Position numbers and translations under genes: made by a program
The notes under the pieces: generated by a model
Seen by the model: only the letters and a program-made list of their open reading frames with translations
The model's database searches: none
Told to the model about the DNA's origin: nothing
Part shown: in pieces, positions 22,325-41,411 of the stretch
Position numbering within the stretch: the first letter of the stretch is position 1
Layout: every line of letters begins with the position of its first letter
DNA from: a virus
Strand: one strand, 5' to 3'
DNA length: 61,945 nt
IMG/VR virus record: IMGVR_UViG_3300021440_000023
Span: 1 to 61,945 of that record

Positions 22325-22325
22325 T

Positions 22326-22802: not shown

Positions 22803-22804
22803 CC

Positions 22805-23077: not shown

Positions 23078-23079
23078 CC

Positions 23080-24920: not shown

Positions 24921-25135
24921 TTTACGAGTTACATATCCGTAGAGGGGTATTAGTAAACACTGACCCGCAGCGGCGATGTTATGACGGTTGCCACTTTTCC
25001 AGCCGGGTCGATTGGTCAGATTGGGAGCGCTGGATGGATTACCCTAGTTTAGAAAAAGCGGAACACGCCGCTAAGCTTTTTGCTAGGGAAGACCAGCAGT
25101 TCAAAATTGTAACCAAAGAAGAGGAGTTAGCTTGA
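24917..25135 (+). CDS. Small protein of the hypermodification cluster
   Basis: A 72-residue protein, overlapping both neighbours (four bases each side). It has the motif RRCYDGCHFSSRVDWSDWERW in its middle, with two cysteines and several tryptophans; the end is charged. I believe similar short proteins occur in phages with hypermodification genes but cannot confirm. Coupled translation with the PLP enzyme and the transferase suggests a partner or binding subunit. Confidence 0.6.
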   Translation: MIYELHIRRGVLVNTDPQRRCYDGCHFSSRVDWSDWERWMDYPSLEKAEHAAKLFAREDQQFKIVTKEEELA

Positions 25136-26136: not shown

Positions 26137-26146
26137 GGATAAATAA

Positions 26147-27624: not shown

Positions 27625-27632
27625 AAGAACAT

Positions 27633-29568: not shown

Positions 29569-31432
29569 TACTATTGTTTTTGACACTGAGATTCTAGGTG
29601 GACGCTTCCTGTTCAAAGGTAGAGTACTAGAGAACCGCAACCTTATAAGTATATGGAGCAATGAGGATGGGTGTATCTCTAAGTTGAGAGATGTCATGAA
29701 TTCTGGGTGCCTGTTTGTGTCTTTCAACGGTATAAAGTTTGACATACCTATTATTTCGGCCGTGATGTGCGGTAAAGATATCAAGACGGTAAAAATGATA
29801 GCTGACAGTATCATTAAGCAAGAGATGCAGCCTTGGGAAGCGGAAAGAAGATTCGGTCTACCGCCTCTAAAAGTAGACCATATAGATCTAATAGAGGTGG
29901 CTCCTTCTTTCGTAGGGCTAAAAACTTACATGGCTCGCATGCATTCTACGTGGTTGAGAGACTTACCGTTCCCCCATGACGTAGAATCGCTAACGGAAGA
30001 AGAGTTCCAGCTTATAGGTCGTTATTGCGAGAATGACTTAGACGGCACGGAAGAACTGTTCAAACATCTAGAGGACCAATTACTACTTCGCTTGGAAATG
30101 TCTAAAATGTACAACGTTGATTTGCGAAGCAAGTCAGACACCCAAATGGCGGAAACGTCATTTATTCAAAAGCTGAACATCAAACGTGTTAAAAAATCAG
30201 TACCGTACACTATCAACTACAAGATGCCTGACTATGTAAACTTTGAAGCTGAACACCTTCAGGAATTAGCTTGTAAAATGCAGAACCACGAGTATTTGAT
30301 GAATATGGCTACCGGGCACGTTATTCTACCTGACTTTTTAAAGGACAAAGTATCTTTGAATAAAGGGTTGTACCAGCTTGGTGTCGGCGGTATACATTCT
30401 ACGCATGATAAAAAGGTTTGTCACGTATCAACAGATGACTGGGTTGTCACTGATATTGACGCGGCTTCGTATTACCCCACTATCTGGGTAAAATGGGGTA
30501 GCAAGTTGGAAAATACAGATCAAGCCTTGACTGAAGAATATAGTAAAGTGTACCACCGTCGTCTAGAAGCCAAAAAACAAAAAGATAAAAAGCTTGCTGA
30601 AAACTTGAAAGTGCCTATCAACGGTACTTTCGGTAAACTGCTGAGCCGGTACTCACCTTTGTACAATCCTGAACTCGGACTCTTCATAACTTTGACCGGC
30701 CAGCTGACGTTGTTGAACCTGATAGAAAAGTTAGAGAAAATAGGCGCGACAGCTTTGTCAGCCAATACCGACGGTATAGCTATGGCTTACCCTAAACATC
30801 TAACGTCTAAAGTAGAAGACGTTGTTTCGGAGTTTTCAAAGCTAACAGGGTACGATTTCGAATACACTCCGTACAGAGTATTAGCCATGAAAGACGTTAA
30901 CAATTATTTAGCGGTTAAAGCGGATCGCACGGTAAAAGCTAAAGGTATTTACGCGGACGCATACGCCGAAACATCCATCGAGAAGCTAAAGAAAAACCCG
31001 ACTTCTAAAGTTTGCGCTTATGCTGTTGGGCAATGGCTTGCTCATGGTACGCTGTTCGGGGACACTATACGTGACGCCCCCTTTACCGATTTCATATCGG
31101 CTCGGAACGTCACAGGGGGCGGGGTACAAGGTGAAGAATACCTGGGTAAAGTTGTCAGATGGTATCAAACCACGGACAAAACGTTACCGGGTATAACCTA
31201 TGGACCTGGTAAAAAAGAAGGTGACAGGGTTGCAAAGACAGAAGGAGCTAGGTCTTGTATGGTCTTAAAAAATAAACAAGCCCATCCGGCAGATTTGGAC
31301 TATACTTGGTACCTTAAAGAAGCCATATCTATAGCAATTAACGTCGGATGTTCAGCTTACCTTTCTCCAGAAGAGCTGGCTTTAGTGGAGAAACCGGCTA
31401 AGGTGAAACGCCAAAGAAAGGTGAACCAGTGA
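29561..31432 (+). CDS. Family B DNA polymerase with 3'-5' exonuclease
   Basis: A 623-residue protein, start ATG 29561. Exonuclease motifs: Exo I FDTEIL (D8, E10), Exo II FNGIKFDIPI at about 52-61 and Exo III YCENDLDGT (Y-x3-D). Polymerase motifs: A DIDAASYYPT at about 298, B VPINGTFGKLLSRYSP, C SANTDGIAM with D404. It is compact, without the large insertions seen in cellular B polymerases. A thumb-like C-terminus carries KKTVKAKGIY-type and basic segments. It copies the phage genome, presumably accepting hydroxymethyl-dUTP, primed by the primase-polymerase. Start overlaps DUF3310; the weak ribosome site implies coupled translation. Confidence 0.9.
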   Translation: MPNTIVFDTEILGGRFLFKGRVLENRNLISIWSNEDGCISKLRDVMNSGCLFVSFNGIKFDIPIISAVMCGKDIKTVKMIADSIIKQEMQPWEAERRFGLPPLKVDHIDLIEVAPSFVGLKTYMARMHSTWLRDLPFPHDVESLTEEEFQLIGRYCENDLDGTEELFKHLEDQLLLRLEMSKMYNVDLRSKSDTQMAETSFIQKLNIKRVKKSVPYTINYKMPDYVNFEAEHLQELACKMQNHEYLMNMATGHVILPDFLKDKVSLNKGLYQLGVGGIHSTHDKKVCHVSTDDWVVTDIDAASYYPTIWVKWGSKLENTDQALTEEYSKVYHRRLEAKKQKDKKLAENLKVPINGTFGKLLSRYSPLYNPELGLFITLTGQLTLLNLIEKLEKIGATALSANTDGIAMAYPKHLTSKVEDVVSEFSKLTGYDFEYTPYRVLAMKDVNNYLAVKADRTVKAKGIYADAYAETSIEKLKKNPTSKVCAYAVGQWLAHGTLFGDTIRDAPFTDFISARNVTGGGVQGEEYLGKVVRWYQTTDKTLPGITYGPGKKEGDRVAKTEGARSCMVLKNKQAHPADLDYTWYLKEAISIAINVGCSAYLSPEELALVEKPAKVKRQRKVNQ

Positions 31433-31734
31433 ATAGATCAACCGTATGGGTCGTATACAACGATTCTCGTAAGAACATGTCTGCCGCTGAAAAGTTTGGC
31501 AACCTGAAAGACGTGTTTTCTTCTGTCGGTAAAATTTACAACGGGGACAAGCTGATAAGTCACGCTAGAAACACGTTGAAAGATTGGAAACATGGGGACC
31601 ACTTGCTTATGGTGGGTGATCCGACTCTTTGCGGTATTTGTGTAGCTATTGTGTCTGAAATGGAAGGAGAATTGAACATTCTACGCTGGGACCGTATAAA
31701 TTTCGACTACACCCCGCTAAAGCTAGTATTTTAA
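31429..31734 (+). CDS. Hypothetical protein downstream of DNA polymerase
   Basis: A 101-residue protein from a GTG at 31429 overlapping the polymerase stop by four bases. NRSTVWVVYNDSRKNMSAAE, HARNTLKDWKHGDHLLMVGD and CGICVAIVSEMEG form an alternating alpha/beta pattern. No enzyme motif recognised. Position suggests a replication accessory protein. Confidence 0.65.
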   Translation: MNRSTVWVVYNDSRKNMSAAEKFGNLKDVFSSVGKIYNGDKLISHARNTLKDWKHGDHLLMVGDPTLCGICVAIVSEMEGELNILRWDRINFDYTPLKLVF

Positions 31735-31751
31735 AGTTTTACACAGCACCA

Positions 31752-31778
31752 CTGACACGGTATCGCACCGTGTATAAC
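31752..31778 (+). promoter_or_regulatory. Promoter/operator with perfect inverted repeat before the recombination operon
   Basis: A 7-base inverted repeat ACACGGT (31755-31761) / ACCGTGT (31767-31773) with a five-base centre overlaps a promoter-like pair CTGACA (31752-31757) and TATAAC (31773-31778; 15-base spacer, shorter than ideal). GGAG at 31783 then precedes the Sak4-like gene. There is no T-run, so it is not a terminator. The half-site ACACGGTA also occurs twice in the 16.9-17.0 kb repeat region. Confidence 0.6.
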
Positions 31779-31791
31779 TATAGGAGTAATC

Positions 31792-32532
31792 ATGAGTAAC
31801 TGGAAATCCAACCTTGTTGTTGGTAAGCAAGAGCTTCCCCCTCGTATCTGTTTGTACGGAACCCATGGTATCGGTAAAAGCACGGTAGCTAGCATGTTCC
31901 CTAACCCGATCTTCATTTCCACAGAAGACGGTATTGACGGCTTGGATGTTACGAGTTTTCCTCGCGCTAAGCACGTTAACGATGTCGTAGAAAACATCAA
32001 AGTTTTGATCAAAGAAGAACACGATTTCAAGACAGTCGTCCTGGACACCGTGGACTGGCTGGTTGAACCTTTGATTATTGACGACGTAGAAGCCTCTCAT
32101 GAAGCTAAAGAGTTGGCTTACGGTAAAGGTCAAGTTCTAGTCGCAGAAAGCTTTCGAGAAATTCTACAGGGTATGGACACTCTCCGGCGCAAGCGTAACA
32201 TGAACGTGGTTCTTCTGGCTCACGCTAACGTGGTTAAGTTCGAGTCCCCGATGACAGAACCGTACGATCGCTACCAGCCTAAGCTGCCTAATCGATGCAA
32301 TGCCTTGTTGCAAGAATGGGTTGATGTGCTAGGTTTTGCCGCATTCAAAGTGGTTATCAAAAAGTCAGACGCAGGTTTTAACAAGGAAGTTACTCGCGGG
32401 GTGTCTACTGGTGAGCGACTGTTACACTTGGTTGAAAACCCGGCCTTTCTGGCTAAGAACCGCTATGCGTGTCCCGACAATATCGAGTTGTCGTACGAAG
32501 AAATCATCAAAGTAATCCCTGTTAAAGTTTAA
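31792..32532 (+). CDS. Sak4-like RecA-superfamily ATPase (single-strand annealing recombinase)
   Basis: A 246-residue protein. Walker A YGTHGIGKST (about 23-32), Walker B FKTVVLDTVDWL, and VVLLAHANVVKF as the sensor strand are those of the AAA_24/Sak4 group. These short RecA-like proteins bind ssDNA and promote annealing, often beside an SSB-like protein. The downstream DUF669 gene supports this. GGAG site, strong start. Confidence 0.85.
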   Translation: MSNWKSNLVVGKQELPPRICLYGTHGIGKSTVASMFPNPIFISTEDGIDGLDVTSFPRAKHVNDVVENIKVLIKEEHDFKTVVLDTVDWLVEPLIIDDVEASHEAKELAYGKGQVLVAESFREILQGMDTLRRKRNMNVVLLAHANVVKFESPMTEPYDRYQPKLPNRCNALLQEWVDVLGFAAFKVVIKKSDAGFNKEVTRGVSTGERLLHLVENPAFLAKNRYACPDNIELSYEEIIKVIPVKV

Positions 32533-32544
32533 GGAGAAGTAATC

Positions 32545-33051
32545 ATGGCAAAATTTGGATTTGATGTTACTGAAGTTGAAGTTTCTGAGCGTGGTGATTT
32601 TGAAGTTATGCCAGAAGGTGAGTACACTTTGAAGGCTACCGAAGCTGAGATGAAAAACACTAAGGCTGGTGATGGTAAATACCTAGCGGTCACTTTTGAA
32701 GTAGTTAAAGGCGAACACGCAGGGCGTAAAGTTTGGCAAAATTTCAATATCTTTAACCCTAACGACAAGGCTGAAAAAATCGGTCGAGAACAGGTTGCAG
32801 GGTGGGCTCGAGCTTGTGGTAAACCTAATGCGTCGGATTCTGACACTTTGTTGGAGCGTTCGTTTCAGTGCGTGTTGAAGGTTGAAAAGGGTTCGGGTGG
32901 TTATTCGGACAAGAACCAGATTAAATCTTTCTTGACCAGTGGTAACGATGCCGGAACAGAAAAACCCGCATCTAAGAAAGCTTCGGAAAAAGCAGAAGTC
33001 GAAAAAGATGACTCACCTGCGCCGTCGGCTAAGAAGAATCCCTGGGATTAA
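32545..33051 (+). CDS. DUF669-type single-stranded DNA-binding protein
   Basis: A 168-residue protein. The OB-fold-like N-terminal part holds MPEGEYTLKATEAEMKNTKA, YLAVTFEVVKGEHAGRKVWQ, then QNFNIFNP. An acidic/basic low-complexity tail follows, ending PSAKKNPWD, resembling the protein-docking tails of SSBs. DUF669 proteins are SSB substitutes in many phages. It lies between the Sak4-like ATPase and the nuclease. Confidence 0.85.
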   Translation: MAKFGFDVTEVEVSERGDFEVMPEGEYTLKATEAEMKNTKAGDGKYLAVTFEVVKGEHAGRKVWQNFNIFNPNDKAEKIGREQVAGWARACGKPNASDSDTLLERSFQCVLKVEKGSGGYSDKNQIKSFLTSGNDAGTEKPASKKASEKAEVEKDDSPAPSAKKNPWD

Positions 33052-33128
33052 CTAATTAGCTGCGCATGCCGGCTCTGCGCATTACAAGTCCCCGGACGAT
33101 ACGATAACGTCTAACTAAAGGTTAACAC

Positions 33129-33974
33129 ATGGTGGCTATACCTAAACCTGAAACATCCATCGCAGATTCCATTTATGAAGCTATTGAAAAACGAGAAGAA
33201 AAAGAGTTACGTCTTTCTCGCATAGGGGCTTCCGGTATTGGTGGGTCATGCTTGCGAGAAATATGGTATTCTTGGCGGGTCTACGACGATAAGAAATTTG
33301 ATGGCCGCATGTTACGCCTGTTCCAAACCGGACACTTACAAGAAGATCGTATCCTGTCTGATTTAAAGCTTGCTGGATACACTGTTTGGGACAGAGACGA
33401 CAACGGTGAGCAGCCTACTTTTACAGATGAAACAGGGCATTTTGTAGCAAAGCTGGATGGGGTTATCAAAGGTGTTCCAGGTTCAGAAAAAACCCCGCAC
33501 GATCTGGAAATAAAGACACACAGCCTCAAAAGTTTCGATGACGTAGTAAAGAAAGGTGTAGAGGTGTCTAAACCTTTACACTACGCACAGATGCAGGCGG
33601 GTATGATGCTGTCAGATGGATCCCTAAAAAGGGCTTTGTACGTGGCGTTATGTAAAAACGACGAAAGATACCACGTGGAGAGAATCAGAGAAGATCTTCC
33701 CGCCCAAGACGTTATACGTAAAAAAGTTATCAAGCTGGTGGAAGCCACTATACCACCTGTTGGTATCTCTGCCGATGGTAAATCCTTTGAATGTAAATGG
33801 TGCGACATGAAGGCTGTGTGCTTGGGAGAAAAAGAACCGATCGTAACTTGTCGTTCTTGCCGGTTTTCTGTAGTGGGTAAAACCAACGGTGAATGGTTGT
33901 GCGGTAACACTGGGGCTGTTCTAACTAATTCTGAGCAGCTCAAAGCGTGCGAAAGTTACGAGGTTCTGTCATGA
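33129..33974 (+). CDS. PD-(D/E)XK nuclease, Cas4/exonuclease-like
   Basis: A 281-residue protein. GASGIGGSCLREIWYSWR at the N-terminus, FVAKLDGVIKGV (motif II Asp) and HDLEIKTHS (E-x-K) mark the PD-(D/E)XK core, with HYAQMQAGMM as the downstream QxxxY-like helix. Cysteines in CKWCDMKAVC and CRSCRF could bind iron-sulphur or zinc, as in Cas4-like proteins. It probably resects DNA ends for the Sak4-like system. The 77 bases before it (33052-33128) contain an inverted repeat around TGCGCA (at about 33061 and 33078) of unknown role. Confidence 0.85.
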   Translation: MVAIPKPETSIADSIYEAIEKREEKELRLSRIGASGIGGSCLREIWYSWRVYDDKKFDGRMLRLFQTGHLQEDRILSDLKLAGYTVWDRDDNGEQPTFTDETGHFVAKLDGVIKGVPGSEKTPHDLEIKTHSLKSFDDVVKKGVEVSKPLHYAQMQAGMMLSDGSLKRALYVALCKNDERYHVERIREDLPAQDVIRKKVIKLVEATIPPVGISADGKSFECKWCDMKAVCLGEKEPIVTCRSCRFSVVGKTNGEWLCGNTGAVLTNSEQLKACESYEVLS

Positions 33975-34447
33975 TAGTTATAGGTGTTGATCCAGGGTTG
34001 AGCGGGGCGGTTGGCGTATTGAAAGATGGGCGGTACGTATCTGTTGCCGATATACCAGTTATGCACAAAGGGTACGGTACAGTTAAAACAGAAGTAGATG
34101 CGGCAGGTTTGTACCGGCTAATTCAATCTACAGTTGATTCGAAAGAAGCCTGCGAGATAGCCCTAGAAAGAGTTTCGGCCATGCCGGGTCAGGGATCTTC
34201 TAGTATATTCAGCTTTGGTGACACTTACGGAGTCTGTCGCGCTGTGGCTGCGGTTTCAGGATTACCCTTAAAGTTAGTGACACCAGCTTCTTGGAAAAAG
34301 CATTTCACACTCACTTCTAACAAAGAAGAGTCTAGATCTAAGGCTATCCGCTTGTTTCCAGGTGCGCCGTTAGAACTAAGGAAGCATGCCGACAGAGCCG
34401 AAGCGCTGTTAATAGCCCGCTATGTTTGGGAAACAGAGTACGCTTGA
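33971..34447 (+). CDS. RuvC-like Holliday-junction resolvase
   Basis: A 158-residue protein, start ATG 33971 overlapping the nuclease stop (ATGA). MIVIGVDPGLSGAVGVL has the first catalytic Asp (D7). IALERVSAMPGQGSSS carries the Glu, and HADRAEALLIARYV the final Asp pair, as in RuvC-type resolvases of phages. It resolves recombination or replication junctions before packaging. It ends the recombination operon; early promoter 3 follows immediately. Confidence 0.9.
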   Translation: MIVIGVDPGLSGAVGVLKDGRYVSVADIPVMHKGYGTVKTEVDAAGLYRLIQSTVDSKEACEIALERVSAMPGQGSSSIFSFGDTYGVCRAVAAVSGLPLKLVTPASWKKHFTLTSNKEESRSKAIRLFPGAPLELRKHADRAEALLIARYVWETEYA

Positions 34448-34451
34448 ACTA

Positions 34452-34518
34452 AAAATAACGCTTTACTTCTTTGCCCCCATGAACTATAATGGGGGCATGT
34501 ATAACAAATAACGTGAAA
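34452..34518 (+). promoter_or_regulatory. Early promoter 3: exact copy of the block at 22432
   Basis: 67 bases identical to 22432-22498, including TTTACT (34462-34467), the 17-base spacer, TATAAT (34485-34490) and the operator palindrome GCCCCCAT (34473-34480) / ATGGGGGC (34489-34496). It drives the small genes at 34535 onwards and the cassette array behind them. Confidence 0.85.
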
Positions 34519-34534
34519 CAGAAAGGAATTAATC

Positions 34535-34774
34535 ATGGACTGGTTATTCTGGCAAGCGCTTATCTGGACATGTACGGACGACCCGTGCATCAGTTTCAAG
34601 AAGCGCGAGGTGGTGCCGATGTGTGTTCGACATGAGGTTAAGTTGACCTGCGAAGAGGCTGATGCGTTCGACAAAGACGAGCGCCCGCTCGAAGAGAAGC
34701 GTGCCGTGCTGCGCACCCGTCTGGACCCGAAAGCACCATGGATGTATCACGAACGATTCGAGGTGCAGAAATGA
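34535..34774 (+). CDS. Hypothetical early protein (79 residues)
   Basis: ATG 34535 after GAAAGGAATTAATC. The N-terminus is hydrophobic (MDWLFWQALIWTCTDDPC), the rest charged (EEADAFDKDERPLEEKRAVL). First gene behind early promoter 3. Shares four bases with the next gene. No family recognised. Confidence 0.6.
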   Translation: MDWLFWQALIWTCTDDPCISFKKREVVPMCVRHEVKLTCEEADAFDKDERPLEEKRAVLRTRLDPKAPWMYHERFEVQK

Positions 34775-34914
34775 AAAAGAAGATATGGATCGCTGTGGGT
34801 GTCGTTGTATGGACACTACTCGTGGGGTTCGTCAGTTACTCCTACGGAAGCTATGAGCAACGGTATCTGGAAGTTCAGGAATGTCATGCAGGAGATGATC
34901 GTGGTCGTATTTGA
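34771..34914 (+). CDS. 47-residue membrane micro-protein
   Basis: MKKKIWIAVGVVVWTLLVGF starts a single lysine-anchored membrane helix; the soluble end contains EQRYLEVQECHAGDD. Start overlaps the preceding stop by four bases. A larger gene overlaps its 3' end in another frame, so boundaries are dense here. Function unknown. Confidence 0.55.
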   Translation: MKKKIWIAVGVVVWTLLVGFVSYSYGSYEQRYLEVQECHAGDDRGRI

Positions 34915-35233
34915 GAGGATTTCCACAGCGATGGAAAATTACAAGTATCTGAAGAGTCGGAACCAGTCCGAGGCGTTCAGCCGGTCGGGTCTTGATGTGG
35001 TACTGAAATCGTTCGTTAAGCTGGTCACGTACCTTCTGACGATTGTTGTCGGTATCTGGTGGTTGTCCGACCAAGCGAATGCGCTGGAAGTGAAGGTGTT
35101 GAGTTCGCAGGAAAAGTACGTCAAGGAACTCGAAGGAGTACTGGCGACGTGCTTAGGTGAGCGAGAGGGTGTCATCACCATTGGAGATGACGTATATTTT
35201 TGTAAAGCTGTTGCAATCGGGGTGAAGAAATGA
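34886..35233 (+). CDS. Single-TM hypothetical protein
   Basis: The start is uncertain: ATG 34886 is preceded by CAGGA and gives 115 residues; an in-frame ATG at 34853 gives 126. One membrane segment lies in VKLVTYLLTIVVGIWWL, followed by QANALEVKVLSSQEKYVKEL (helical) and two cysteines (ATCLGERE, FCKAVAIG). Could be a membrane-bound early protein of unknown role. Confidence 0.6.
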   Translation: MQEMIVVVFERISTAMENYKYLKSRNQSEAFSRSGLDVVLKSFVKLVTYLLTIVVGIWWLSDQANALEVKVLSSQEKYVKELEGVLATCLGEREGVITIGDDVYFCKAVAIGVKK

Positions 35234-35460
35234 CTAAGGTGACGATCAGTGATGCCGCCAAAGCCTTGTGCGCCCTTGAGGAAGAACGCAAGAAGTTGTG
35301 GGAAGAGGCACAAGAAGTCAGTCACGCTCAGTGCAAATTGATGGCGGATACGTCGTGCGAGATGCTTCGATTGTCGGGTAAACATGCCGTGATTCTTGAC
35401 CGGATGATGAAACTGGATGACGTATCTGTCGAGATTCGTAAGAAGTTGGTGAGTCTATGA
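35230..35460 (+). CDS. Helical hypothetical protein (76 residues)
   Basis: ATG 35230 overlaps the previous stop (ATGA). ALCALEEERKKLWEEAQEVS is a charged helix; the remainder is also helical. Overlaps the next start by four bases. No family recognised. Confidence 0.6.
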   Translation: MTKVTISDAAKALCALEEERKKLWEEAQEVSHAQCKLMADTSCEMLRLSGKHAVILDRMMKLDDVSVEIRKKLVSL

Positions 35461-35768
35461 AATTACATAAGATTGATAACTACACTGTGACTACGACCGT
35501 AGGCGAAATGGTTGCAGAATTGATGAAGTTCGACCAATCAGCCTATGTGTTCACTGAAGGGTGTGATTGTACGGGCAACGTGGTCAGCGTCATGCTTTGT
35601 TCCGACGGGACTGTTCTCATTGAGCGCGATGGGTGGGTAGTTAAGCAGGCCGGGATATTTGAATGGCCCGCTGATGATAAAACCATGGATGCTGACTGGC
35701 AGGAGGTTGCATTCATAAAGTCGTGGGCAAGAGAAGGTTCTAACGCCGAATTAAAGGGCGGGCTTTAG
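35457..35768 (+). CDS. Hypothetical protein ending inside the first attC site
   Basis: A 103-residue protein. VTTTVGEMVAELMKFDQSAY resembles small phage proteins with an 'L-x-x-L-x-x-FDxDAxV' pattern; CDCTGNVVSVMLCSDGTVLI follows. The frame reads through the start of attC1 and stops in its stem (TAG at 35766-35768), so the last nine or so residues are coded by the recombination site. No matching cassette start (expected GTTAGAACC) is seen upstream, so the left boundary of the array is lost or this gene was the ancestral insertion target. Confidence 0.65.
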   Translation: MKLHKIDNYTVTTTVGEMVAELMKFDQSAYVFTEGCDCTGNVVSVMLCSDGTVLIERDGWVVKQAGIFEWPADDKTMDADWQEVAFIKSWAREGSNAELKGGL

Positions 35769-35796
35769 CCCGTCCGCTTTGAATGTGGAGTTAGAA
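35738..35796 (+). other. attC site 1 (integron cassette recombination site)
   Basis: A 59-base element bounded by TTCTAAC (R'', 35738-35744) and GTTAGAA (R', 35790-35796), which are perfect reverse complements. In between are imperfectly paired arms (AATTAAAGGGCGGGC, loop TTTA, GCCCGTCCGCTTTGAAT). It matches the attC architecture; the cut is expected after the G of GTTAGAA. Confidence 0.85.
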
Positions 35797-35800
35797 GGCA

Positions 35801-36037
35801 ATGAATAGACCTGAGCGAATTTACAACGTGAGCCAGACGCAATTGAGCGTTGCGAAGTTTTACGGTGGATGCAAATTCAACGGTGCGGATTACCACTATG
35901 ACGCCGAAAGCGACACGCTGACGAGGATGGACATTTGGAAAGCGCGTATTGCAAGCAGCAAGGAAGATGCCGCGAAAGCCGCAAAGGCCGAACGCGAAAA
36001 ATGGATGAAGGCGCAGCAGAGTTTTGCTGCCTTCTAA
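35801..36037 (+). CDS. Cassette 1 protein
   Basis: A 78-residue protein. MNRPERIYNVSQTQLSVAKF then YGGCKFNGADYHYDAESDTL, and a basic alanine/lysine-rich C-terminal helix (AKAAKAEREKWMKAQQ). GGAGTTAGAAGGCA before the ATG supplies a ribosome site that overlaps attC1. The stop TAA is part of the R'' box of attC2, the compact arrangement usual in integron cassettes. Family not recognised. Confidence 0.75.
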   Translation: MNRPERIYNVSQTQLSVAKFYGGCKFNGADYHYDAESDTLTRMDIWKARIASSKEDAAKAAKAEREKWMKAQQSFAAF

Positions 36038-36088
36038 CGCTTGAATTAACCGGCGCCGGTAGGCGTCCGGTTGAATGAACTGTTAGAA
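36032..36088 (+). other. attC site 2
   Basis: 57 bases, TTCTAAC (36032-36038) to GTTAGAA (36082-36088); with the flanks the pairing extends to GCCTTCTAAC/GTTAGAAGGC. It is strikingly close in outline to the aadA-type attC (TAACGCTTGA-TTAA ... GGTTGAA-GAA-TGTTAG). The start of cassette 1 (TTAGAAGG) is the complement of the R'' here. Confidence 0.9.
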
Positions 36089-36111
36089 GGCCGGCTGATA
36101 AGGAGATTTGA

Positions 36112-36243
36112 ATGTACTCAAGAATCAACAACAACGTATTTTTCCTGCTGCCGGCAATTGCGGTAGGAGTCGATACAGACGGGCAGTATTTTGTAGAGGT
36201 TGCGTTTTTTAACATTGCAATTGGCTTTGGGAGGACTGAGTAA
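36112..36243 (+). CDS. Cassette 2, first protein (43 residues)
   Basis: MYSRINNNVFFLLPAIAVGV then DTDGQYFVEVAFFNIAIGFG. AAGGAG lies six bases before the ATG. It ends TAATG, sharing bases with the start of the second cassette gene, so the two are coupled. A short beta-rich or membrane-touching protein; unknown function. Confidence 0.6.
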   Translation: MYSRINNNVFFLLPAIAVGVDTDGQYFVEVAFFNIAIGFGRTE

Positions 36244-36449
36244 TGTGTGATTACCAAGGCCATGAATTTGGAGCGATCTACCCTGACAGCGTGTGCATTG
36301 ACGGGTTTTTGTGGGATGCCGACAGCGGTGACGCTTGCGGCGACGGATGGTGCTACACGAATGGCGGCGAAATACCCTGCCCGCAGTGCAACGCGGATGC
36401 CTATGCCGAGCATGTTCGCAGTGATGACGACTTGCCTTCTAACGCTTAG
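36243..36449 (+). CDS. Cassette 2, second protein, cysteine-rich
   Basis: A 68-residue protein: MCDYQGHEFGAIYPDSVCID, then DACGDGWCYTNGGEIPCPQC, ending SDDDLPSNA. Six or more cysteines, including C-x2-C pairs, suggest a zinc site. Acidic overall. The stop TAG lies just inside attC3. Confidence 0.65.
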   Translation: MCDYQGHEFGAIYPDSVCIDGFLWDADSGDACGDGWCYTNGGEIPCPQCNADAYAEHVRSDDDLPSNA

Positions 36450-36499
36450 GTGATGGGCGCGAGGCTTGCCGAGCGTCATCATCGACCGGAGTGTTATCG
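36437..36499 (+). other. attC site 3
   Basis: 63 bases, R'' TTCTAAC (36437-36443; extended GCCTTCTAAC) and R' GTTATCG (36493-36499). R'' is complementary to the start of cassette 2 (TTAGAAGGC), whereas R' opens cassette 3 (TTATCGA). The two ends of this site do not match each other, as expected when different cassettes were joined by recombination. Confidence 0.9.
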
Positions 36500-36522
36500 A
36501 CCAAACTACGAAAGGAAAAAGA

Positions 36523-36714
36523 ATGTTACGACTTTTGAAGCGAACCGCCGAGACAGCAGTAAAGCTGCCGTTCGCAGCGGCATGGGATTTTATTTCGCTC
36601 GGCAACATGGGCGAAGGCACCAGCACAGGCAAAGTGCTGCGCGAACACGAAGCGAAGAAGCAGCTTGATGATATTGCAGAGATCATTGATCGGGTGCGCG
36701 AGATTGGGCGATAA
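36523..36714 (+). CDS. Cassette 3 protein
   Basis: A 63-residue protein from the ATG at 36523 after GAAAGGA. RTAETAVKLPFAAAWDFISL, then GEGTSTGKVLREHEAKKQLD and a C-terminal helix. Helical with a short hydrophobic part; similar proteins occur in phages. The stop TAA is contained in the R'' of attC4. Confidence 0.7.
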   Translation: MLRLLKRTAETAVKLPFAAAWDFISLGNMGEGTSTGKVLREHEAKKQLDDIAEIIDRVREIGR

Positions 36715-36769
36715 CGCTTAGGTAAAGGGCGCTTGCTTGCAAGCGTCCGCTTTGACCGGAGTGTTATGC
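36709..36769 (+). other. attC site 4
   Basis: 61 bases, R'' CGATAAC (36709-36715) and R' GTTATGC (36763-36769). R'' is the reverse complement of the start of cassette 3 (GTTATCG in attC3). Its arms (GGTAAAGGGCGCTTGC ... AAGCGTCCGCTTTGACC) differ from attC6 by one base. Confidence 0.9.
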
Positions 36770-36788
36770 GAATTTACTGGAGAACGAT

Positions 36789-37037
36789 ATGACGAAGTAC
36801 AGAAAAAAGCCCGTAGTGATCGACGCTATTCAATGGACAGGAGCTAACCGCCAAGATGTTGCTGATTTTTGTGGCGATGATGTTTTGACGCCGATTGAGG
36901 CATTCAAGCCGTTTCAGGTTGGTACGCTTGAAGGGTTACACACAGCCAGCGTAGGCGACTGGATTATTCGTGGCGTGAAGGGGGAACACTACCCGTGCAA
37001 GCCTGACATCTTTGAGGCGACGTATGAAGTCGCATAA
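36789..37037 (+). CDS. Cassette 4 protein, phage-type 'KYRKKPVVIDAIQW' family
   Basis: An 82-residue protein: MTKYRKKPVVIDAIQWTGAN, then GLHTASVGDWIIRGVKGEHY and PCKPDIFEATYEVA. This is a very common small protein of phages and prophages, of unknown function. GGAGAACGAT before the ATG. The stop TAA lies inside the R'' of attC5. Confidence 0.85.
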   Translation: MTKYRKKPVVIDAIQWTGANRQDVADFCGDDVLTPIEAFKPFQVGTLEGLHTASVGDWIIRGVKGEHYPCKPDIFEATYEVA

Positions 37038-37065
37038 CGCTTAGGTAAAGGGCGCTTGCTTGCGC
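37032..37065 (+). other. attC site 5, truncated
   Basis: R'' GCATAAC (37032-37038) complements the start of cassette 4 (GTTATGC in attC4). The left arm matches attC4 and attC6 through GGGCGCTTGCTTGC, then the sequence changes to GCGGCGCATTT, with no R' (GTT) end. A deletion has removed the right arm and the start of the next cassette. Confidence 0.8.
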
Positions 37066-37086
37066 GGCGCATTTAAGGAGAGTCAC

Positions 37087-37344
37087 ATGGGATGCTTTAT
37101 TAAAGTGCCACTGGAAGAAGTGCAAACGTATAAAAACGGTTTTGTTTGCATGACTAATAAGTGGTGGTTAGTTGAGGACGGGTGCGTGCTTGGGTACAAG
37201 ATATACGGCGAGAAAAGTAAGCTACGCCCAAGCCCACAGTGCAACCCAGACAAACGATTGATTGAGATGGTGCTGAAACGTAACCCGGAACAGACGGCGG
37301 TATTTTTAGACGTTGCATACTGGTGGCCGGATAGTGACGCCTAA
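37087..37344 (+). CDS. Cassette 5 protein
   Basis: An 85-residue protein from the ATG at 37087 after AAGGAG. MGCFIKVPLEEVQTYKNGFV, WWLVEDGCVLGYKIYGEKSK, VLKRNPEQTAVFLDVAYWW. Beta-rich with aromatics. Its cassette start is lost by the deletion in attC5, but the 3' attC6 is intact. Family unknown. Confidence 0.7.
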   Translation: MGCFIKVPLEEVQTYKNGFVCMTNKWWLVEDGCVLGYKIYGEKSKLRPSPQCNPDKRLIEMVLKRNPEQTAVFLDVAYWWPDSDA

Positions 37345-37399
37345 CGCTTAGGTAAAGGGCGCTTGCTTGCAAGCGCCCGCTTTGACCGGAGTGTTATAC
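37339..37399 (+). other. attC site 6
   Basis: 61 bases, R'' GCCTAAC (37339-37345), R' GTTATAC (37393-37399). Almost identical to attC4 in its arms (AAGCGCCCGC here, AAGCGTCCGC there). R' opens cassette 6 (TTATACCC). Confidence 0.9.
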
Positions 37400-37422
37400 C
37401 CGGCGCAACTACGGAGAAAGAC

Positions 37423-37935
37423 ATGGAGCGACTGCAATACCCAATGAACCACGAGTGGCATGTAGCCATAAACCGGCACCACGACGGCAAGATTGGCTCG
37501 CCGGACTGGAAGCGCTGGATGTACGAAGCGAAAACGATGGCCGATGAAGTGCCGCGCATGGTGCTGTTGTTTGGAAAGGAGCGGCGTGGAGAACTGGCGA
37601 CAACGCACAAGCAATGCTCGATGCAGCCAGCGGTGCCCGTGGAAAACAACCACCTTAAATGCTGCCTTGGCGTGAAGTGCGCGGAATGCCCGCAGCTTCT
37701 GGCGCTGGAGAAGATGGAGCGCGTAACGCCAGAAGAAATTGACACGGCGAAAGCATGGACATGTACGGCGCACATTGCTTCCGAAGGCGGCGACATGATG
37801 GGCGAAGGCTATTTGCTCGATGTGACCGACCGCATGTTTTGGGACAACGTTTGCGAGAGCCTGAGCCAAAGTGACGAAGGGTATAACGCAAAAATCATCG
37901 GTGAGCGTAGCGAGTCCGATGGATTGACGGGTTAG
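37423..37935 (+). CDS. Cassette 6 protein
   Basis: A 170-residue protein from the ATG at 37423 with GGAGAAAGAC upstream. MERLQYPMNHEWHVAINRHH, MTKADEVPRM-like helix (KTMADEVPRMVLLFGKERRG), then CCLGVKCAECPQLLALEKME with C-C and C-x2-C pairs. The frame runs through attC7 and stops in its R' box, so the last 18 or so residues are coded by the recombination site. Family unknown. Confidence 0.7.
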   Translation: MERLQYPMNHEWHVAINRHHDGKIGSPDWKRWMYEAKTMADEVPRMVLLFGKERRGELATTHKQCSMQPAVPVENNHLKCCLGVKCAECPQLLALEKMERVTPEEIDTAKAWTCTAHIASEGGDMMGEGYLLDVTDRMFWDNVCESLSQSDEGYNAKIIGERSESDGLTG

Positions 37936-37937
37936 CC
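37881..37937 (+). other. attC site 7
   Basis: 57 bases, R'' GTATAAC (37881-37887; with flank GGGTATAAC) and R' GTTAGCC (37931-37937). R'' is the complement of the start of cassette 6 (GTTATACCC), nine bases in all. The arms (AATCATCGGTGAGC ... CGAGTCCGATGGATTG) are unlike those of sites 4 and 6, so the site has a separate origin. Confidence 0.85.
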
Positions 37938-37978
37938 GTGCGCCCGATGAAAGCACGGAAACGGAAAAGGACATGAAC

Positions 37979-38416
37979 ATGCAAAAAACGACGATTGACA
38001 AGATGGTTGATAAATTCCTTGGCTGGAAATTGCCAAAGGACTTTGGGCCGGATGCGGGCATTTCGTTTAAGCCTACAAAACCTTACGAGGGTGATGAACT
38101 TGGGAATTCTTGGTGGCCGGTTGGAACGAACCTTCTGACCGCAGACCAAGCGCGGCAGATGTTTGAGCACTGTATGGACGAAGAACCATGCACCAGCCAA
38201 CAGCCTGGCCCGCACGCGGCGCTGCCACCGCACCAGCAGCGCGTATTGGCCGAGAAGACAGAGCTTGACGAAAAAGCTACCGCGCTCAGCAACTTCATTG
38301 GGCACAGCGCAATATTTGAAACGCTCGACGCAGCAGAGCAGGAGAGACTGAAAGAGCAGAACGACGTGATGTGGCAATACTCAGAGATTCTCGGGAAGCG
38401 CATCGCGGCATTCTGA
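37979..38416 (+). CDS. Cassette 7 protein, phage-type conserved
   Basis: A 145-residue protein. The ATG at 37979 has AAGGA at the right distance; the ATG at 37973 is too close. KTTIDKMVDKFLGWKLPKDF, then GPDAGISFKPTKPY and WPVGTNLLTADQARQMFEHC form a well-known conserved small phage protein of unknown function. The C-terminal half is helical (AVLAEKTELDEKATALSNFI-like). Cassette start TTAGCCGT. Confidence 0.8.
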   Translation: MQKTTIDKMVDKFLGWKLPKDFGPDAGISFKPTKPYEGDELGNSWWPVGTNLLTADQARQMFEHCMDEEPCTSQQPGPHAALPPHQQRVLAEKTELDEKATALSNFIGHSAIFETLDAAEQERLKEQNDVMWQYSEILGKRIAAF

Positions 38417-38446
38417 TTCGGGGGCCGTCATCGGTTCAGGCTGGTG

Positions 38447-38499
38447 ACGGCTAACACATAGTAGACGACACCTGTCCGGTTTGACCCTGAAACCGGACA
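38447..38499 (+). other. attC-like remnant 8 and hairpin
   Basis: ACGGCTAAC (38447-38455) is the complement of the start of cassette 7 (GTTAGCCGT in attC7), so it is the R'' of an eighth site. No R' end follows. A 10-base perfect inverted repeat, TGTCCGGTTT (38473-38482) / AAACCGGACA (38490-38499), with a 7-base loop comes next and has no T-run. This is the right edge of the array. Confidence 0.65.
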
Positions 38500-38512
38500 C
38501 GAAAGGATGACG

Positions 38513-38746
38513 ATGGATAAGAAAACAATCGAGCGACTGGCTGTGGAGTCTGGTTTTCCAGAAGCGTGGATTACGTACACAGGTACGTTTTCGTGGGAAA
38601 TGTTTTACAAATTCGCCGAGGCTATTGAAGAAAACGTAAAGCAGGCTGGCGGGAATGGTAAAGCGGAGCCAGCATCACACCAGAAAACGGATGATGCGGC
38701 GAAGTGGTACGAACAGGAAGGAGGGTTAGAGGATGGACATTGTTGA
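38513..38746 (+). CDS. Hypothetical protein right of the array
   Basis: A 77-residue protein from the ATG at 38513 (GAAAGG six bases before). DKKTIERLAVESGFPEAWIT, WEMFYKFAEAIEENVKQAGG, then an acidic end. It overlaps the next gene by 14 bases. The pattern 'IERLAVESGF' is common in small phage proteins. Function unknown. Confidence 0.7.
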   Translation: MDKKTIERLAVESGFPEAWITYTGTFSWEMFYKFAEAIEENVKQAGGNGKAEPASHQKTDDAAKWYEQEGGLEDGHC

Positions 38747-38891
38747 AAGCCTATTTGACGAAGCGCAAGACAATCCTGATTCGTTGTATTGGAAAGCAGC
38801 CGAAACCATCGAACAGCTACGCCAGCAACTCGCCGAGCGCGACCGGGCTGTGAGTTTGCCATCGCCCTCCGCGCAAAAGCAAAGGAACTGA
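38733..38891 (+). CDS. 52-residue hypothetical protein
   Basis: MDIVESLFDEAQDNPDSLYW, then KAAETIEQLRQQLAERDRAV and a serine/proline-rich end. AGGAGGG lies eight bases before the ATG at 38733. Coiled-coil-like middle typical of small phage proteins ('A-x-x-IExLRxQLAERD'). Confidence 0.65.
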   Translation: MDIVESLFDEAQDNPDSLYWKAAETIEQLRQQLAERDRAVSLPSPSAQKQRN

Positions 38892-38895
38892 AACC

Positions 38896-39093
38896 GTGAG
38901 CAGCCCAAAACATTGCAAGTGCGGCGCTCGCGGTCGATGTACCGACAGCCGAGAAGAGCAAAATCTTTTTTACCGTCGGCGGTATGAATGCAAGTCGTGT
39001 AACGCACGGTGGAAAACCTACGAACTCCGCATTGATGTGTTCAATGGCGAAACGATTTATGACTCTCTGCGTCGATGGCTTGGCGCTATTTAG
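38896..39093 (+). CDS. Zinc-ribbon protein, NrdR-N-terminal-like
   Basis: A 65-residue protein from a GTG at 38896. CKCGARGRCTDSREEQNLFY and RRRYECKSCNARWKTYELRI give C-x-C ... C-x2-C with the D-S-R and RRR-Y-x-C features of the NrdR zinc ribbon, but without the ATP-cone. It could be a small DNA-binding regulator. 112 bases of non-coding sequence with a promoter follow. Confidence 0.7.
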   Translation: MSSPKHCKCGARGRCTDSREEQNLFYRRRYECKSCNARWKTYELRIDVFNGETIYDSLRRWLGAI

Positions 39094-39148
39094 GATTCCA
39101 TGAAAGTCACGGCATGTTGAATTATTGTCCTTGGGGAAAAGATGACGC

Positions 39149-39176
39149 TTGACGTTTGTGAAACAAGTGTTATACT
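39149..39176 (+). promoter_or_regulatory. Sigma70-type promoter before the MazG-like gene
   Basis: TTGACG (39149-39154), a 16-base spacer, TATACT (39171-39176). The best -35 in the window. It lacks the GCCCCCAT box of the other plus-strand promoters, so this block is probably expressed independently of that regulator. Confidence 0.75.
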
Positions 39177-39205
39177 GATTGAACTATAAACGTTAGAGGA
39201 AACAA

Positions 39206-39502
39206 ATGAACACTTTCCAATTCATCCGCCAATGGGCGGAAGACCGTAATCTGATCAAAGGTTCCAACTCCCGCGCTCAAATGCTCAAGTTGATGGAAGA
39301 GATGGGTGAACTGGCTACCGGGATCAATAAGAACAATCCCACTGAGATTGAGGACGGTATTGGTGACTGCGTGGTCGTCTTGACGATTCTCGCCGCACAG
39401 AATGGTCTGACCATCGAAGACTGCATCATGACCGCGTACCACGAAATCAAAGACCGCAAGGGTCGAATGGTGGACGGTGTCTTTGTCAAGGAGGCCGTGT
39501 GA
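39206..39502 (+). CDS. MazG-like nucleotide pyrophosphohydrolase
   Basis: A 98-residue protein, AGAGGA before the ATG. LKLMEEMGELATGINKNNPT has the E-E-x2-E helix and EDGIGDCVVVLTILAAQNGL the E-x-x-D helix of the MazG/all-alpha NTP pyrophosphatase fold. Phage MazG-like enzymes degrade non-canonical or signalling nucleotides. In this phage it could clean dUTP or dTTP pools. Start overlap with the next gene (GTGA). Confidence 0.85.
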   Translation: MNTFQFIRQWAEDRNLIKGSNSRAQMLKLMEEMGELATGINKNNPTEIEDGIGDCVVVLTILAAQNGLTIEDCIMTAYHEIKDRKGRMVDGVFVKEAV

Positions 39503-39900
39503 AGCGACTCTATCACTCCGAGGTCTTGCGGAAGGACGTAAAGTCTCAATTCGGCGGGGCAGATCGCTACTTCGCCAACATGTTGTTCGGACCTGTGAAT
39601 CCCCTGATTCGTCGTAAGCATGATGACGTTCCTGCACTTCCTATCAACATTCCTCATGAGGCATGTGTTCTCGGGAATAAGACGAGTGCCGACAATCGAC
39701 GGAAGAACGCCAATATCCGAATGATGGCACTGGTGGATAAGAAGGGTGTCGTTACCTCCACCGATGTCTGCGATGCGAAGTTGTATGTCTCGATTGTGGG
39801 TGCCCTTGTCGTCCTGAAGCGCATGGAGTGCGATGGGCTACTGGTACGTGTCGGTACGGACGAAGACGGTCGTATTCTGTTCGCAAGGAAGCCGAAATGA
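39499..39900 (+). CDS. Hypothetical protein with winged-helix-like C-terminal half
   Basis: A 133-residue protein from a GTG at 39499 overlapping the MazG stop. The first 70 residues are basic. MMALVDKKGVVTSTDVCDAK, LYVSIVGALVVLKRMECDGL, LVRVGTDEDGRILFARKP recall a helix-turn-helix plus beta wing. A DNA-binding role is plausible but not certain. Confidence 0.6.
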   Translation: MKRLYHSEVLRKDVKSQFGGADRYFANMLFGPVNPLIRRKHDDVPALPINIPHEACVLGNKTSADNRRKNANIRMMALVDKKGVVTSTDVCDAKLYVSIVGALVVLKRMECDGLLVRVGTDEDGRILFARKPK

Positions 39901-40217
39901 GCGAGTTCGACCCCAACACCACATGGGCTGGTCGCATCATCGACACCTACGTCCAAGAGGACATTGTGGAACAGATCAGTGTCAAGGCTCGGGAGCTACT
40001 GAAGACGCGATATTCAATCAAGTCACCCGACACCATCGCACTCGTATTTGCTCGGATGGCTGGCGACAAGAAGATTTGCCTTGAGATCGCACAGTCCGTG
40101 ACCTTTGATGCCCCATTGACATGCGGGATGCGTGTTCATGAGTATGTGCGTCGCTACGTGTTTGAACGAGCAATGAAGGAAGCGACCGAGATGTTCGAAA
40201 ATGGTGAGGTCATATAA
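39897..40217 (+). CDS. Hypothetical protein (106 residues)
   Basis: ATG 39897 overlaps the previous stop. MSEFDPNTTWAGRIIDTYVQ, IKSPDTIALVFARMAGDKKI, RVHEYVRRYVFERAMKEATE. Helical, soluble. No family recognised. Ends TAATG with the start of a tiny frame. Confidence 0.6.
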   Translation: MSEFDPNTTWAGRIIDTYVQEDIVEQISVKARELLKTRYSIKSPDTIALVFARMAGDKKICLEIAQSVTFDAPLTCGMRVHEYVRRYVFERAMKEATEMFENGEVI

Positions 40218-40291
40218 TGTCTTGCGAATGTTCAGCTTATCGGTTTCCCCATCGTGTCACCGCGCAATCGTGGGGTGTATGTGCCGGTTGA
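40217..40291 (+). CDS. 24-residue micro-protein
   Basis: MSCECSAYRFPHRVTAQSWG and four more residues. Short cysteine-containing peptides of the form MSC-x-C-x2-YRFPHR are often seen in phages. It starts in the stop of the previous gene (TAATG). It overlaps the next frame, so the evidence is modest. Confidence 0.45.
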   Translation: MSCECSAYRFPHRVTAQSWGVCAG

Positions 40292-40556
40292 AGATCACCC
40301 TACTCACAGTCTCACCCGTGTCGCCTTTGACAAGCCTTATGGGTGTAGTAATACTGTTCGATCTGGCGGCTATTGGGCACCCGAACGGCGGTACTTCCCG
40401 GACGGGCGCTTCGATATTACGAATGTCTGGATCGAGAACCGTATGAGTAAAGAGTGTCGTTATGACTTGTCTGAATCAGATAGTCGCTGTGGCACCTGTG
40501 TCCGCAGAGGGCAAGGTGCTTCTTATAATCAAAAACTTAGGAGCAATAATGGCTGA
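40254..40556 (+). CDS. Hypothetical protein with C-terminal cysteines
   Basis: A 100-residue frame from GTG 40254 (MSPRNRGVYVPVEDHPTHSL). AFDKPYGCSNTVRSGGYWAP, then DGRFDITNVWIENRMSKECR and SRCGTCVRRGQG. Either the whole frame or only the part from ATG 40443 is expressed; no strong ribosome site marks either start. Moderate confidence only. Confidence 0.45.
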   Translation: MSPRNRGVYVPVEDHPTHSLTRVAFDKPYGCSNTVRSGGYWAPERRYFPDGRFDITNVWIENRMSKECRYDLSESDSRCGTCVRRGQGASYNQKLRSNNG

Positions 40557-40743
40557 TCTTGCAGATATTTCTGGAGAACGCATGGAAGTAGAAGAGGAAA
40601 TGCGGAGGCGTCGTATCACCCCGCCACCTCTTCCCGCAATAGGTGTTTGTTACTACTGTGACACGTCTGTCCCAACGGGTCACAGGTTCTGCGATGCTGA
40701 TTATCGGGACGGTTATGACTACGAACAGAAACGGAGGAAGTGA
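40549..40743 (+). CDS. Small zinc-finger-like protein, DksA/TraR-type end
   Basis: A 64-residue protein with AGGAG before ATG 40549. An acidic N-terminal helix (ISGERMEVEEEMRRRRITPP) and CYYCDTSVPTGHRFCDADYR recall the short C4/C-H finger seen in DksA/TraR-like and related phage proteins, here with C-x2-C, H and C. It may touch RNA polymerase, but the fold is not certain. Confidence 0.65.
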   Translation: MADLADISGERMEVEEEMRRRRITPPPLPAIGVCYYCDTSVPTGHRFCDADYRDGYDYEQKRRK

Positions 40744-40817
40744 TGAATTGGGAACAACTGGAATTCGACTTCAATGAACCCGCTGAACCCGAAGAGGTGG
40801 TAAATGAGTCGGAATGA
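40743..40817 (+). CDS. 24-residue acidic micro-protein
   Basis: MNWEQLEFDFNEPAEPEEVV and four more residues. It starts in the stop of the preceding gene (TGATG) and overlaps the next frame. Very acidic. Small phages often have such peptides ('EFDFNEP'). Evidence is limited to tiling. Confidence 0.45.
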   Translation: MNWEQLEFDFNEPAEPEEVVNESE

Positions 40818-40980
40818 TGTGACAGGTGACGAGATTCGCTCCAAGGGTTCTACGGAGAGGTATCGTAAGGGGTGGGATGCTATCTTCGCGGAGCCATCTA
40901 AAGAACCCGTGGTTGTTGAAGATATTATTACAGCTAACGTTGTATTTCCCGATAACGGAGAAAAAGAGAACAGTAAATGA
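40804..40980 (+). CDS. 58-residue hypothetical protein
   Basis: MSRNDVTGDEIRSKGSTERY, then RKGWDAIFAEPSKEPVVVED and an acidic end. 'S-T-E-x-Y-RxGWD-x-IF' is a familiar small phage protein pattern. GAGGTGGTAA upstream serves as ribosome site. Overlaps the following start (ATGA). Confidence 0.65.
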   Translation: MSRNDVTGDEIRSKGSTERYRKGWDAIFAEPSKEPVVVEDIITANVVFPDNGEKENSK

Positions 40981-41411
40981 AAGAAGAAGAACGCGATCGC
41001 CTATTAGATATACTGAAATCAGCACCAGATGAAGTGCTAATTAACGCGGTGTTAGAGATGAAAGCTACTCGTCAAAGGTTAAAAGAAGACCTGGACCTAG
41101 CGTTCAAATATTTCGGCAACGGTAAACCTAAAGACTCTGTTCCGCCGGTTATAATGGTCTCTAAGGTGGAACAGAATATTCAGAACTCTATTTCTACGTC
41201 CTCTAATAACATTAAGCCTCCGGGCGATGCTGCCGCTCGAATCGGATCTGAAACCGAAAACCTAGTAACCAGATACCTGAAAGATGGACCCAAAGATGTA
41301 GACAAGTTAGCGTTAGTTTTAGCTAGACCTATAAAACTTACTGAAAGCCTTCTAGCTCGCTTATGGGATAAAAAAGTAGTAAAATACGACGGAGAAAAAT
41401 ATTATATTTAA
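40977..41411 (+). CDS. Hypothetical protein, possible winged helix; last plus-strand gene
   Basis: A 144-residue protein. N-terminal helices (DRLLDILKSAPDEVLINAVL), a polar linker rich in S and N (SISTSSNNIKP), and a C-terminal LVTRYLKDGPKDVDKLALVL, then LARLWDKKVVKYDGEKYYI, which looks like a winged-helix domain. It may be a DNA-binding regulator of late genes, a role suggested only by position. Followed by a strong terminator. Confidence 0.65.
   Translation: MKEEERDRLLDILKSAPDEVLINAVLEMKATRQRLKEDLDLAFKYFGNGKPKDSVPPVIMVSKVEQNIQNSISTSSNNIKPPGDAAARIGSETENLVTRYLKDGPKDVDKLALVLARPIKLTESLLARLWDKKVVKYDGEKYYI

What the first reader, a model, noticed from the sequence alone, without database searches (positions are those of the whole stretch)
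35738..38499. Integron-type gene cassette array inside a phage genome
At least seven attC-like sites (35738, 36032, 36437, 36709, 37032, 37339, 37881) plus a remnant at 38447 separate small genes, all in the same direction, over 2.8 kb. The sites are 57-63 bases, begin with a xxxTAAC box and end with a GTTAxxx box, and have paired arms. attC2 closely follows the outline of the aadA-type site. Gene stops commonly fall in the first box of the site, as in known cassettes. In integron biology such arrays sit in bacterial chromosomes, plasmids or transposons. An array in a complete lytic-looking phage would be an unusual route for cassette traffic.
Basis: partly seen in the sequence, partly recalled or inferred. 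Interest (0 to 1): 0.97.

Follow-up and report, generated by a model that had tools for sequence, protein, structure and literature searches.

The report
Phage integron with back-to-front gene cassettes
This virus of bacteria carries a row of swappable gene cassettes like those that spread antibiotic resistance in bacteria, but every gene points backwards relative to its recombination site; many other phages share this layout, often with their own integron integrase, and comparisons show that they swap such cassettes with one another.

Summary
The array is real. A covariance model built only from bacterial attC sites, with the phage's own subtype excluded, finds six of the seven named sites to the base. 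The site at 37032 is half-destroyed. The "remnant" at 38447 best fits a decayed attI.

All six sites lie on the minus strand and all genes on the plus strand, so every ORF is inverted relative to its attC, the reverse of bacterial cassettes. The layout is general:
- In IMG/VR, 86 of 95 attC locus clusters are inverted (6 sense); 13 of 14 bacterial loci are sense.
- At least 229 viral stretches encode IntI relatives. In 58 of 60 analysable loci the ORFs run toward intI; bacterial controls 1 of 27.
- Most viral IntIs form one clade and share an attI motif.

Movement is visible. Phages identical for kilobases around one intI carry different first cassettes, switching exactly at RYYYAA|C. Homology blocks between unrelated phages end at the R' cut. 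The window's cassette 36443-36714 recurs in a phage that has intI.

The window is an integrase-less array of this phage integron type. Phage-borne attC sites were known (PMC9892861); I found no account of the inverted polarity or of a phage IntI/attI lineage.

The parts
35738..35796 (-). attC1 (canonical polarity on minus strand); predicted cut 35743/35744
   Evidence: R1 22.1 bits; boxes 7/7 complementary; fold z -5.2
35801..36037 (+). cassette gene A (78 aa, unknown function); stop TAA is the TAA|C of attC2's R' box
   Evidence: 82% identical over full length to cassette genes of L136/L138/L145/L178, which also lie between two attC sites
36032..36088 (-). attC2, closest to the aadA1 attC; cut 36037/36038
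   Evidence: R1 24.3 bits; 78% identity to aadA1 attC in class 1 integrons; fold z -5.5
36112..36243 (+). cassette gene B1 (43 aa)
   Evidence: 61% match over 38 aa ending beside an attC in L220
36243..36449 (+). cassette gene B2 (68 aa), phage family phrog_20542; stop TAG lies inside attC3
36437..36499 (-). attC3 (weaker); cut 36442/36443
   Evidence: R1 17.0 bits; fold z -2.6
36523..36714 (+). cassette gene C (63 aa)
   Evidence: cassette shared at 81% over 225 bp with IMGVR_UViG_3300044990_001033 (L132/L239/L233), homology ending at the R' cut in both; that phage encodes IntI
36709..36769 (-). attC4, best site; cut 36714/36715
   Evidence: R1 34.0 bits, E 3e-6; fold z -4.1
36789..37037 (+). 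cassette gene D (82 aa), phage families phrog_419/phrog_1810
   Evidence: homolog ending at an attC in L124
37032..37086 (-). degenerate attC5: R' box and one arm kept, other arm lost
   Evidence: sequence; fold z +0.5; not found by R1
37087..37344 (+). cassette gene E (85 aa), weak phrog_13902 match
37339..37399 (-). attC6; cut 37344/37345
   Evidence: R1 29.5 bits; fold z -4.3
37423..37935 (+). cassette gene F (170 aa), reads through attC7; a 44% homolog lies upstream of intI in L276
37881..37937 (-). attC7, weak/decayed; cut 37886/37887
   Evidence: R1 15.7 bits; fold z -0.8
37979..38416 (+). cassette gene G (145 aa), crAss001_48-related; attI-proximal
   Evidence: 58% N-terminal homolog is the attI-proximal cassette gene of intI-bearing phage L239/L233
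38449..38480 (-). putative decayed attI (reads GGCTAAC...GACGACACCTG on the + strand); no intI follows
   Evidence: 11/11 match of GACGACACCTG at the right spacing to the L239 attI; best attI-matrix position in the whole window, but weak: 7.5 bits against a median of 31.7 for real sites; intI absent

Best explanation
The window holds the cassette array of a phage-type integron that has lost its integrase gene. Shown: each unit, read along the phage's plus-strand early operon, is attC - ribosome binding site - small gene - stop codon, mostly at the integrase cut (TAA|C); attC polarity is opposite to the genes; the same arrangement is common in phages, often beside an intact intI with a conserved attI motif; and cassettes differ between near-identical phages exactly at those cut points. 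Inferred: an integron integrase supplied in trans (by a co-infecting phage of this type, or by a host integron) recognises the folded bottom strand of attC, here the coding strand, and inserts cassettes at attI or swaps them between attC sites. Because the genes are inverted they need no Pc promoter: they join the phage's own transcription unit, with intI, where present, downstream in the same direction. The pool lets phages exchange small accessory genes; those with known function beside phage intI include DNA-modification and anti-restriction genes.
For: attC model hits. Polarity: window 6/6 sites antisense; viral loci 92 antisense, 6 sense, 6 mixed of 104 (86/6/3 of 95 clusters); bacterial loci 13 of 14 sense. 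IntI loci: viral 58 inverted to 2, bacterial 1 inverted to 26; 39 of 41 attC hits in viral IntI loci on the strand opposite to intI. Near-identical phages L239/L242/L243 with the same intI but different first cassettes, switching exactly at RYYYAA|C, with the left breakpoint also at an attC cut. Block ends within 10 bp of predicted cuts: 40 of 193 against 2.05 expected (max 7 in 500 trials); R' 44 to R'' 3, 17 to 1 by independent locus pairs. Stop codon exactly at TAA|C in 71 of 146. Window cassette genes found as cassettes in other phages. Genes beside phage intI include Mom, N6/N4 methylase, PTPS, Lar, Dam.
Against: No intI in the window or in 13 related phages, so present mobility of this array is inferred. 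attC5 is broken and attC7 weak; the attI match is weak and alone does not exceed chance (phages without arrays reach up to 11.0 bits). No recombination was measured. R1 and the gene caller are homemade; viral status was checked by hallmark genes only for the window and three intI contigs.
Confidence: 0.82

Rival explanations
1. An ordinary bacterial cassette array (CALIN) was captured by chance by a phage, as in the Vibrio, P1 and Shewanella phages of PMC9892861, and has no link to a phage system.
For: attC sites of the same subtype occur in Marinobacter and other bacterial arrays; sites 5 and 7 are decaying; no intI.
Against: A bacterial array stays sense however it is inserted; here every gene is antisense to attC. 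Window cassette genes have homologs in phage cassettes, none in the bacterial arrays fetched; several belong to phage protein families.
Confidence: 0.07
2. The hairpins are phage RNA or DNA elements (terminators, processing or 5' UTR structures between genes of an operon) that only look like attC and do not recombine.
For: They lie between co-directional genes, close to stop and start codons, and 4 of 7 fold strongly.
Against: They match a model of bacterial attC on one strand only, with the unpaired bases of attC in place. Homology blocks between phages end at the R' edge, not at R''. attI cassette swaps stop at the cut. In the isolate PH101, whose array is also inverted, attC sites were shown to recombine by IntI1 (PMC9892861).
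Confidence: 0.05
3. The repeats are attC descendants, but genes are exchanged by homologous recombination between repeats, not by IntI.
For: attC4, 5 and 6 are nearly identical repeats; phages often recombine at short homologies; there is no intI in the window.
Against: Crossovers between repeats would fall anywhere in the 60 bp; block ends cluster at the R' cut, 17 locus pairs to 1. In L239/L242/L243 the breakpoint is in attI, where the variants share only the core AAC and what follows.
Confidence: 0.1
4. Assembly chimera or contaminating bacterial DNA in a metagenomic contig.
For: The sequence is metagenomic; the record is unreviewed.
Against: Array genes continue one co-directional plus-strand block from 21656 to 41411, the genes on either side of the block are phage genes, and the same layout recurs in many contigs from many samples and in the isolate PH101.
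Confidence: 0.03

Closest known systems
attC clusters lacking an integrase (CALINs) in virulent phages, e.g. Pseudoalteromonas phage PH101, Tetrasphaera phage TJE1, Polaribacter phage P12002L (PMC9892861)
   Same: attC sites between small co-directional genes in a lytic phage, no intI; attC sites shown there to recombine with attI1 by IntI1. PH101 shares the inverted polarity: attC on +, annotated genes on -.
   Different: Inverted polarity is not remarked on in the parts of that paper I read; TJE1 is sense. No link to a phage IntI/attI type or to cassette exchange between phages was drawn.
Bacterial mobile and chromosomal integrons (class 1 IntI1; Marinobacter-type arrays)
   Same: IntI family TIGR02249, attI beside intI, attC polarity relative to intI, cut in the R' box, attC2 close to aadA1 attC.
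   Different: Bacterial cassette genes run away from intI, from Pc; phage ones run toward intI, in the same direction as it.
Integrons carried by temperate phages (V. anguillarum phages, P1, Shewanella M16-3; PMC9892861)
   Same: intI and attC in a phage genome.
   Different: Their IntIs are under 60% identical to the phage-type IntI found here; described there as fragments or copies of bacterial integrons.

Membership tests
integron cassette array (CALIN) | two or more attC sites within a few kb, detected by a covariance model | tested here: met
   six R1 hits in 2.2 kb, four of them at E<0.01; homemade model, not IntegronFinder's
integron cassette array (CALIN) | extrahelical bases giving strand polarity, all sites in the same polarity | tested here: met
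   all on minus, no opposite-strand hit to any of the sites
integron cassette array (CALIN) | genes in the same sense as attC, as in classical cassettes | tested here: not met
   all genes antisense; this departs from the classical layout and is why it is called a variant
integron cassette array (CALIN) | recombination at R' by IntI | tested here: inconclusive
   strong comparative evidence in related phage arrays; not measured for these sites
complete integron | intI gene | tested here: not met
   no TIGR02249 match in the window, though the model rings on other recombinases in all 14 control genomes
complete integron | attI | tested here: inconclusive
   best matrix position in the window at the expected place and strand, but a weak score
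phage-type (inverted) integron | ORFs run toward attI/intI while attC has the opposite polarity | tested here: inconclusive
   met for ORF and attC polarity and for the putative attI end; intI itself is missing in the window

The most novel reading that the evidence does not exclude
Phages possess their own integron lineage: a mainly viral IntI clade, a conserved attI motif, and a pool of inverted cassettes that are expressed from phage operons and exchanged between unrelated phages largely apart from bacterial cassette traffic, carrying counter-defence genes among others. The window is an integrase-less user of that pool.
Probability: 0.7. Interest if true: 0.95.

Novelty: new variant of a known kind. 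Interest (0 to 1): 0.9.

Why it matters
Integrons are treated as bacterial devices whose cassettes face away from the integrase and are read from Pc. A phage form with the genes turned round would be a site-specific gene-swapping system of viruses, offering a concrete mechanism for modular exchange in phage accessory regions and for collecting anti-restriction genes (Mom, methylases, QueD-like PTPS, Lar). The swaps seen at one attI in near-identical phages make it testable at once. It also matters for reading cassette genes in phages, and raises the question whether such phages feed bacterial integrons; class 1 IntI1 fell inside the viral clade in a quick tree, on a long branch, which needs a proper test.

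Tried and rejected
Rfam (4227 families) found nothing at gathering thresholds. A regex plus folding search alone was useless: hundreds of chance hairpins, hence the covariance model. A greedy longest-ORF caller mislabelled the window as mixed because of long antisense shadow ORFs and was replaced by a codon-model caller that gives three clean strand blocks. Search for TAACGCTTAGGTNANNGGCGC in viral contigs found nothing, so two looser attC patterns were used. Megablast to isolate phages found no relative. The attI matrix match in the window is too weak to stand alone. No search of metagenome reads for excised circles was possible. Structure prediction was not needed.

Full report
WHAT IS THERE. 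The window is a virus record of 61,945 bp with a 232-bp terminal direct repeat differing at one base. Gene calls give three strand blocks: minus 3-21474, plus 21656-41411, minus 41451-61916, with terminase, helicase, DNA polymerase, thymidylate synthase and head genes. The array lies in the plus block, among small genes.

ATTC SITES. I collected attC sites from bacterial arrays (mainly Marinobacter, Halomonas and Providencia genomes plus the class 1 aadA1 site), left out those of the phage's own subtype, and built covariance model R1 from 21 of them. The bacterial arrays themselves scored 18-54 bits, so the phage sites (15.7-34 bits) fall in the lower half of the normal range. 37032 is a broken site. 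On the minus strand the sites show the canonical attC order TAACA...C-bulge...A-bulge...GCGTTA.

POLARITY. In bacterial arrays genes have the same sense as attC. In the window all genes are plus and all attC minus. Two loose attC patterns fetched 116 viral loci, and R1 confirmed sites in most of them. Of 104 loci analysed, 92 are antisense, 6 sense and 6 mixed, against 13 of 14 bacterial loci sense; after merging near-identical loci 86/6/3 of 95. Four of the six sense loci (L119, L148, L193, L221) carry record names that look like isolate genomes, so they may be bacterial integrons in or beside prophages (inference from the names). The stop codon ends exactly at TAA|C in 71 of 146 cases, and the next start lies a median of 22 nt after attC.

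PHAGE INTEGRONS WITH INTEGRASE. Three of 50 array contigs encode full-length IntI (450-466 bits, cut-off 265), in contigs with terminase and, in two of them, other virion genes. An IntI alignment found at least 229 viral stretches with IntI relatives, of which the best 80 were fetched. In 58 of 60 loci with upstream sequence the ORFs run toward intI; in bacterial controls 1 of 27. 39 of 41 attC hits in these loci are on the strand opposite to intI (one, in L269, lies downstream of it), as in bacterial integrons, so the platform is canonical and only the ORFs are turned. A quick tree puts 58 viral IntIs in one clade with a single bacterial row, IntI1, which is joined there by a viral contig carrying an almost identical gene; a few viral IntIs lie elsewhere. 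An attI motif, consensus GCCTAACTTAAATTCGACGACACC on the gene strand, was aligned from 44 loci.

MOVEMENT. L239, L242 and L243 share intI and its surroundings at 99.9-100% over 1.3 to 7 kb. Upstream of intI they carry, respectively, a crAss001_48-like cassette gene within a 2.7-kb array, a 355-bp segment, and a PTPS (QueD-like) gene. The sequences become identical exactly at the core AAC of attI; the left breakpoint between L239 and L242 is also at a TAA|C. Between unrelated viral loci, homologous blocks end within 10 bp of a predicted cut 40 times of 193 (2.05 expected), at R' rather than R'' (44 to 3; 17 locus pairs to 1).

THE WINDOW IN THIS PICTURE. Its cassette 36443-36714 is 81% identical over 225 bp to a cassette of the intI-bearing phage IMGVR_UViG_3300044990_001033, the homology stopping at the R' cut in both. 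Gene 35801-36037 is 82% identical to cassette genes of four other contigs (probably one phage population), again between attC sites. Gene 37979-38416 resembles the attI-proximal gene of that intI-bearing phage, and 37423-37935 resembles a gene upstream of intI in L276. By contrast, the flanking genes 33129-34447 have homologs in dozens of DNA-polymerase relatives of this phage, while 13 related genomes show no attC and no IntI. After 38416 comes GGCTAACACATAGTAGACGACACCTG, the best attI-like position in the genome and at the expected end and strand, but weak. I read the window as an array that has lost intI and whose attI is decaying.

WHAT WAS KNOWN. PMC9892861 reported 17 attC clusters and four integrase-bearing cases among 21 phages, with five of six tested phage attC sites recombining by IntI1. 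I found no paper describing inverted polarity or a phage IntI/attI lineage; the library lacks most subscription papers and preprints. In the isolate PH101 from that paper, R1 finds four attC sites (32-43 bits) on plus while the annotated genes are on minus, an independent confirmation in a cultured virulent phage. TJE1 is sense. By eye, P12002L looks inverted at 30005-30059, but R1 did not call it.

LIMITS. The model, gene caller and tree are quick constructions; E-values are rough; most contigs were not checked for viral origin one by one; the search patterns cover two attC subtypes, so the counts are lower bounds and not a census. That the window's array is still mobile, and which integrase serves it, is inference.

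Noticed in passing
L318, L304, L292 (IntI tree): Class 1 IntI1 falls inside the viral IntI clade in a quick tree, next to viral L292, on a long branch (0.64). L304 is a viral contig with an almost identical IntI1.
   Followed up: no
L242:9580-9934: A 355-bp segment in the first cassette position begins with an attC-like site and contains a long inverted repeat (AAGTAAGCGGTGTCGCTT...AAGCGACACCGCTTACTT) but no clear gene; perhaps a non-coding cassette.
   Followed up: no
L243:136-486; L255:63-749 and 1231-1875; L263:3742-4479; L273:8112-8864: Genes shortly upstream of phage intI include a QueD-like PTPS, a DNA methylase, Mom and PAPS-reductase-like proteins, suggesting counter-restriction cargo.
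   Followed up: partly
L269, L121, L125, L137, L150 (sample 3300020045): The sample that yields the window phage's closest relatives also holds a phage-type IntI (L269) and several attC-bearing viral contigs; a possible source of integrase in trans.
   Followed up: no
L362:27919-29987 (Pseudoalteromonas phage PH101, record 75919-77987): In a cultured virulent phage the attC cluster is inverted relative to the annotated genes.
   Followed up: yes
window 11307-11355: A lone attC-like match (18.5 bits, minus strand) inside a large late-region gene; probably chance.
   Followed up: no
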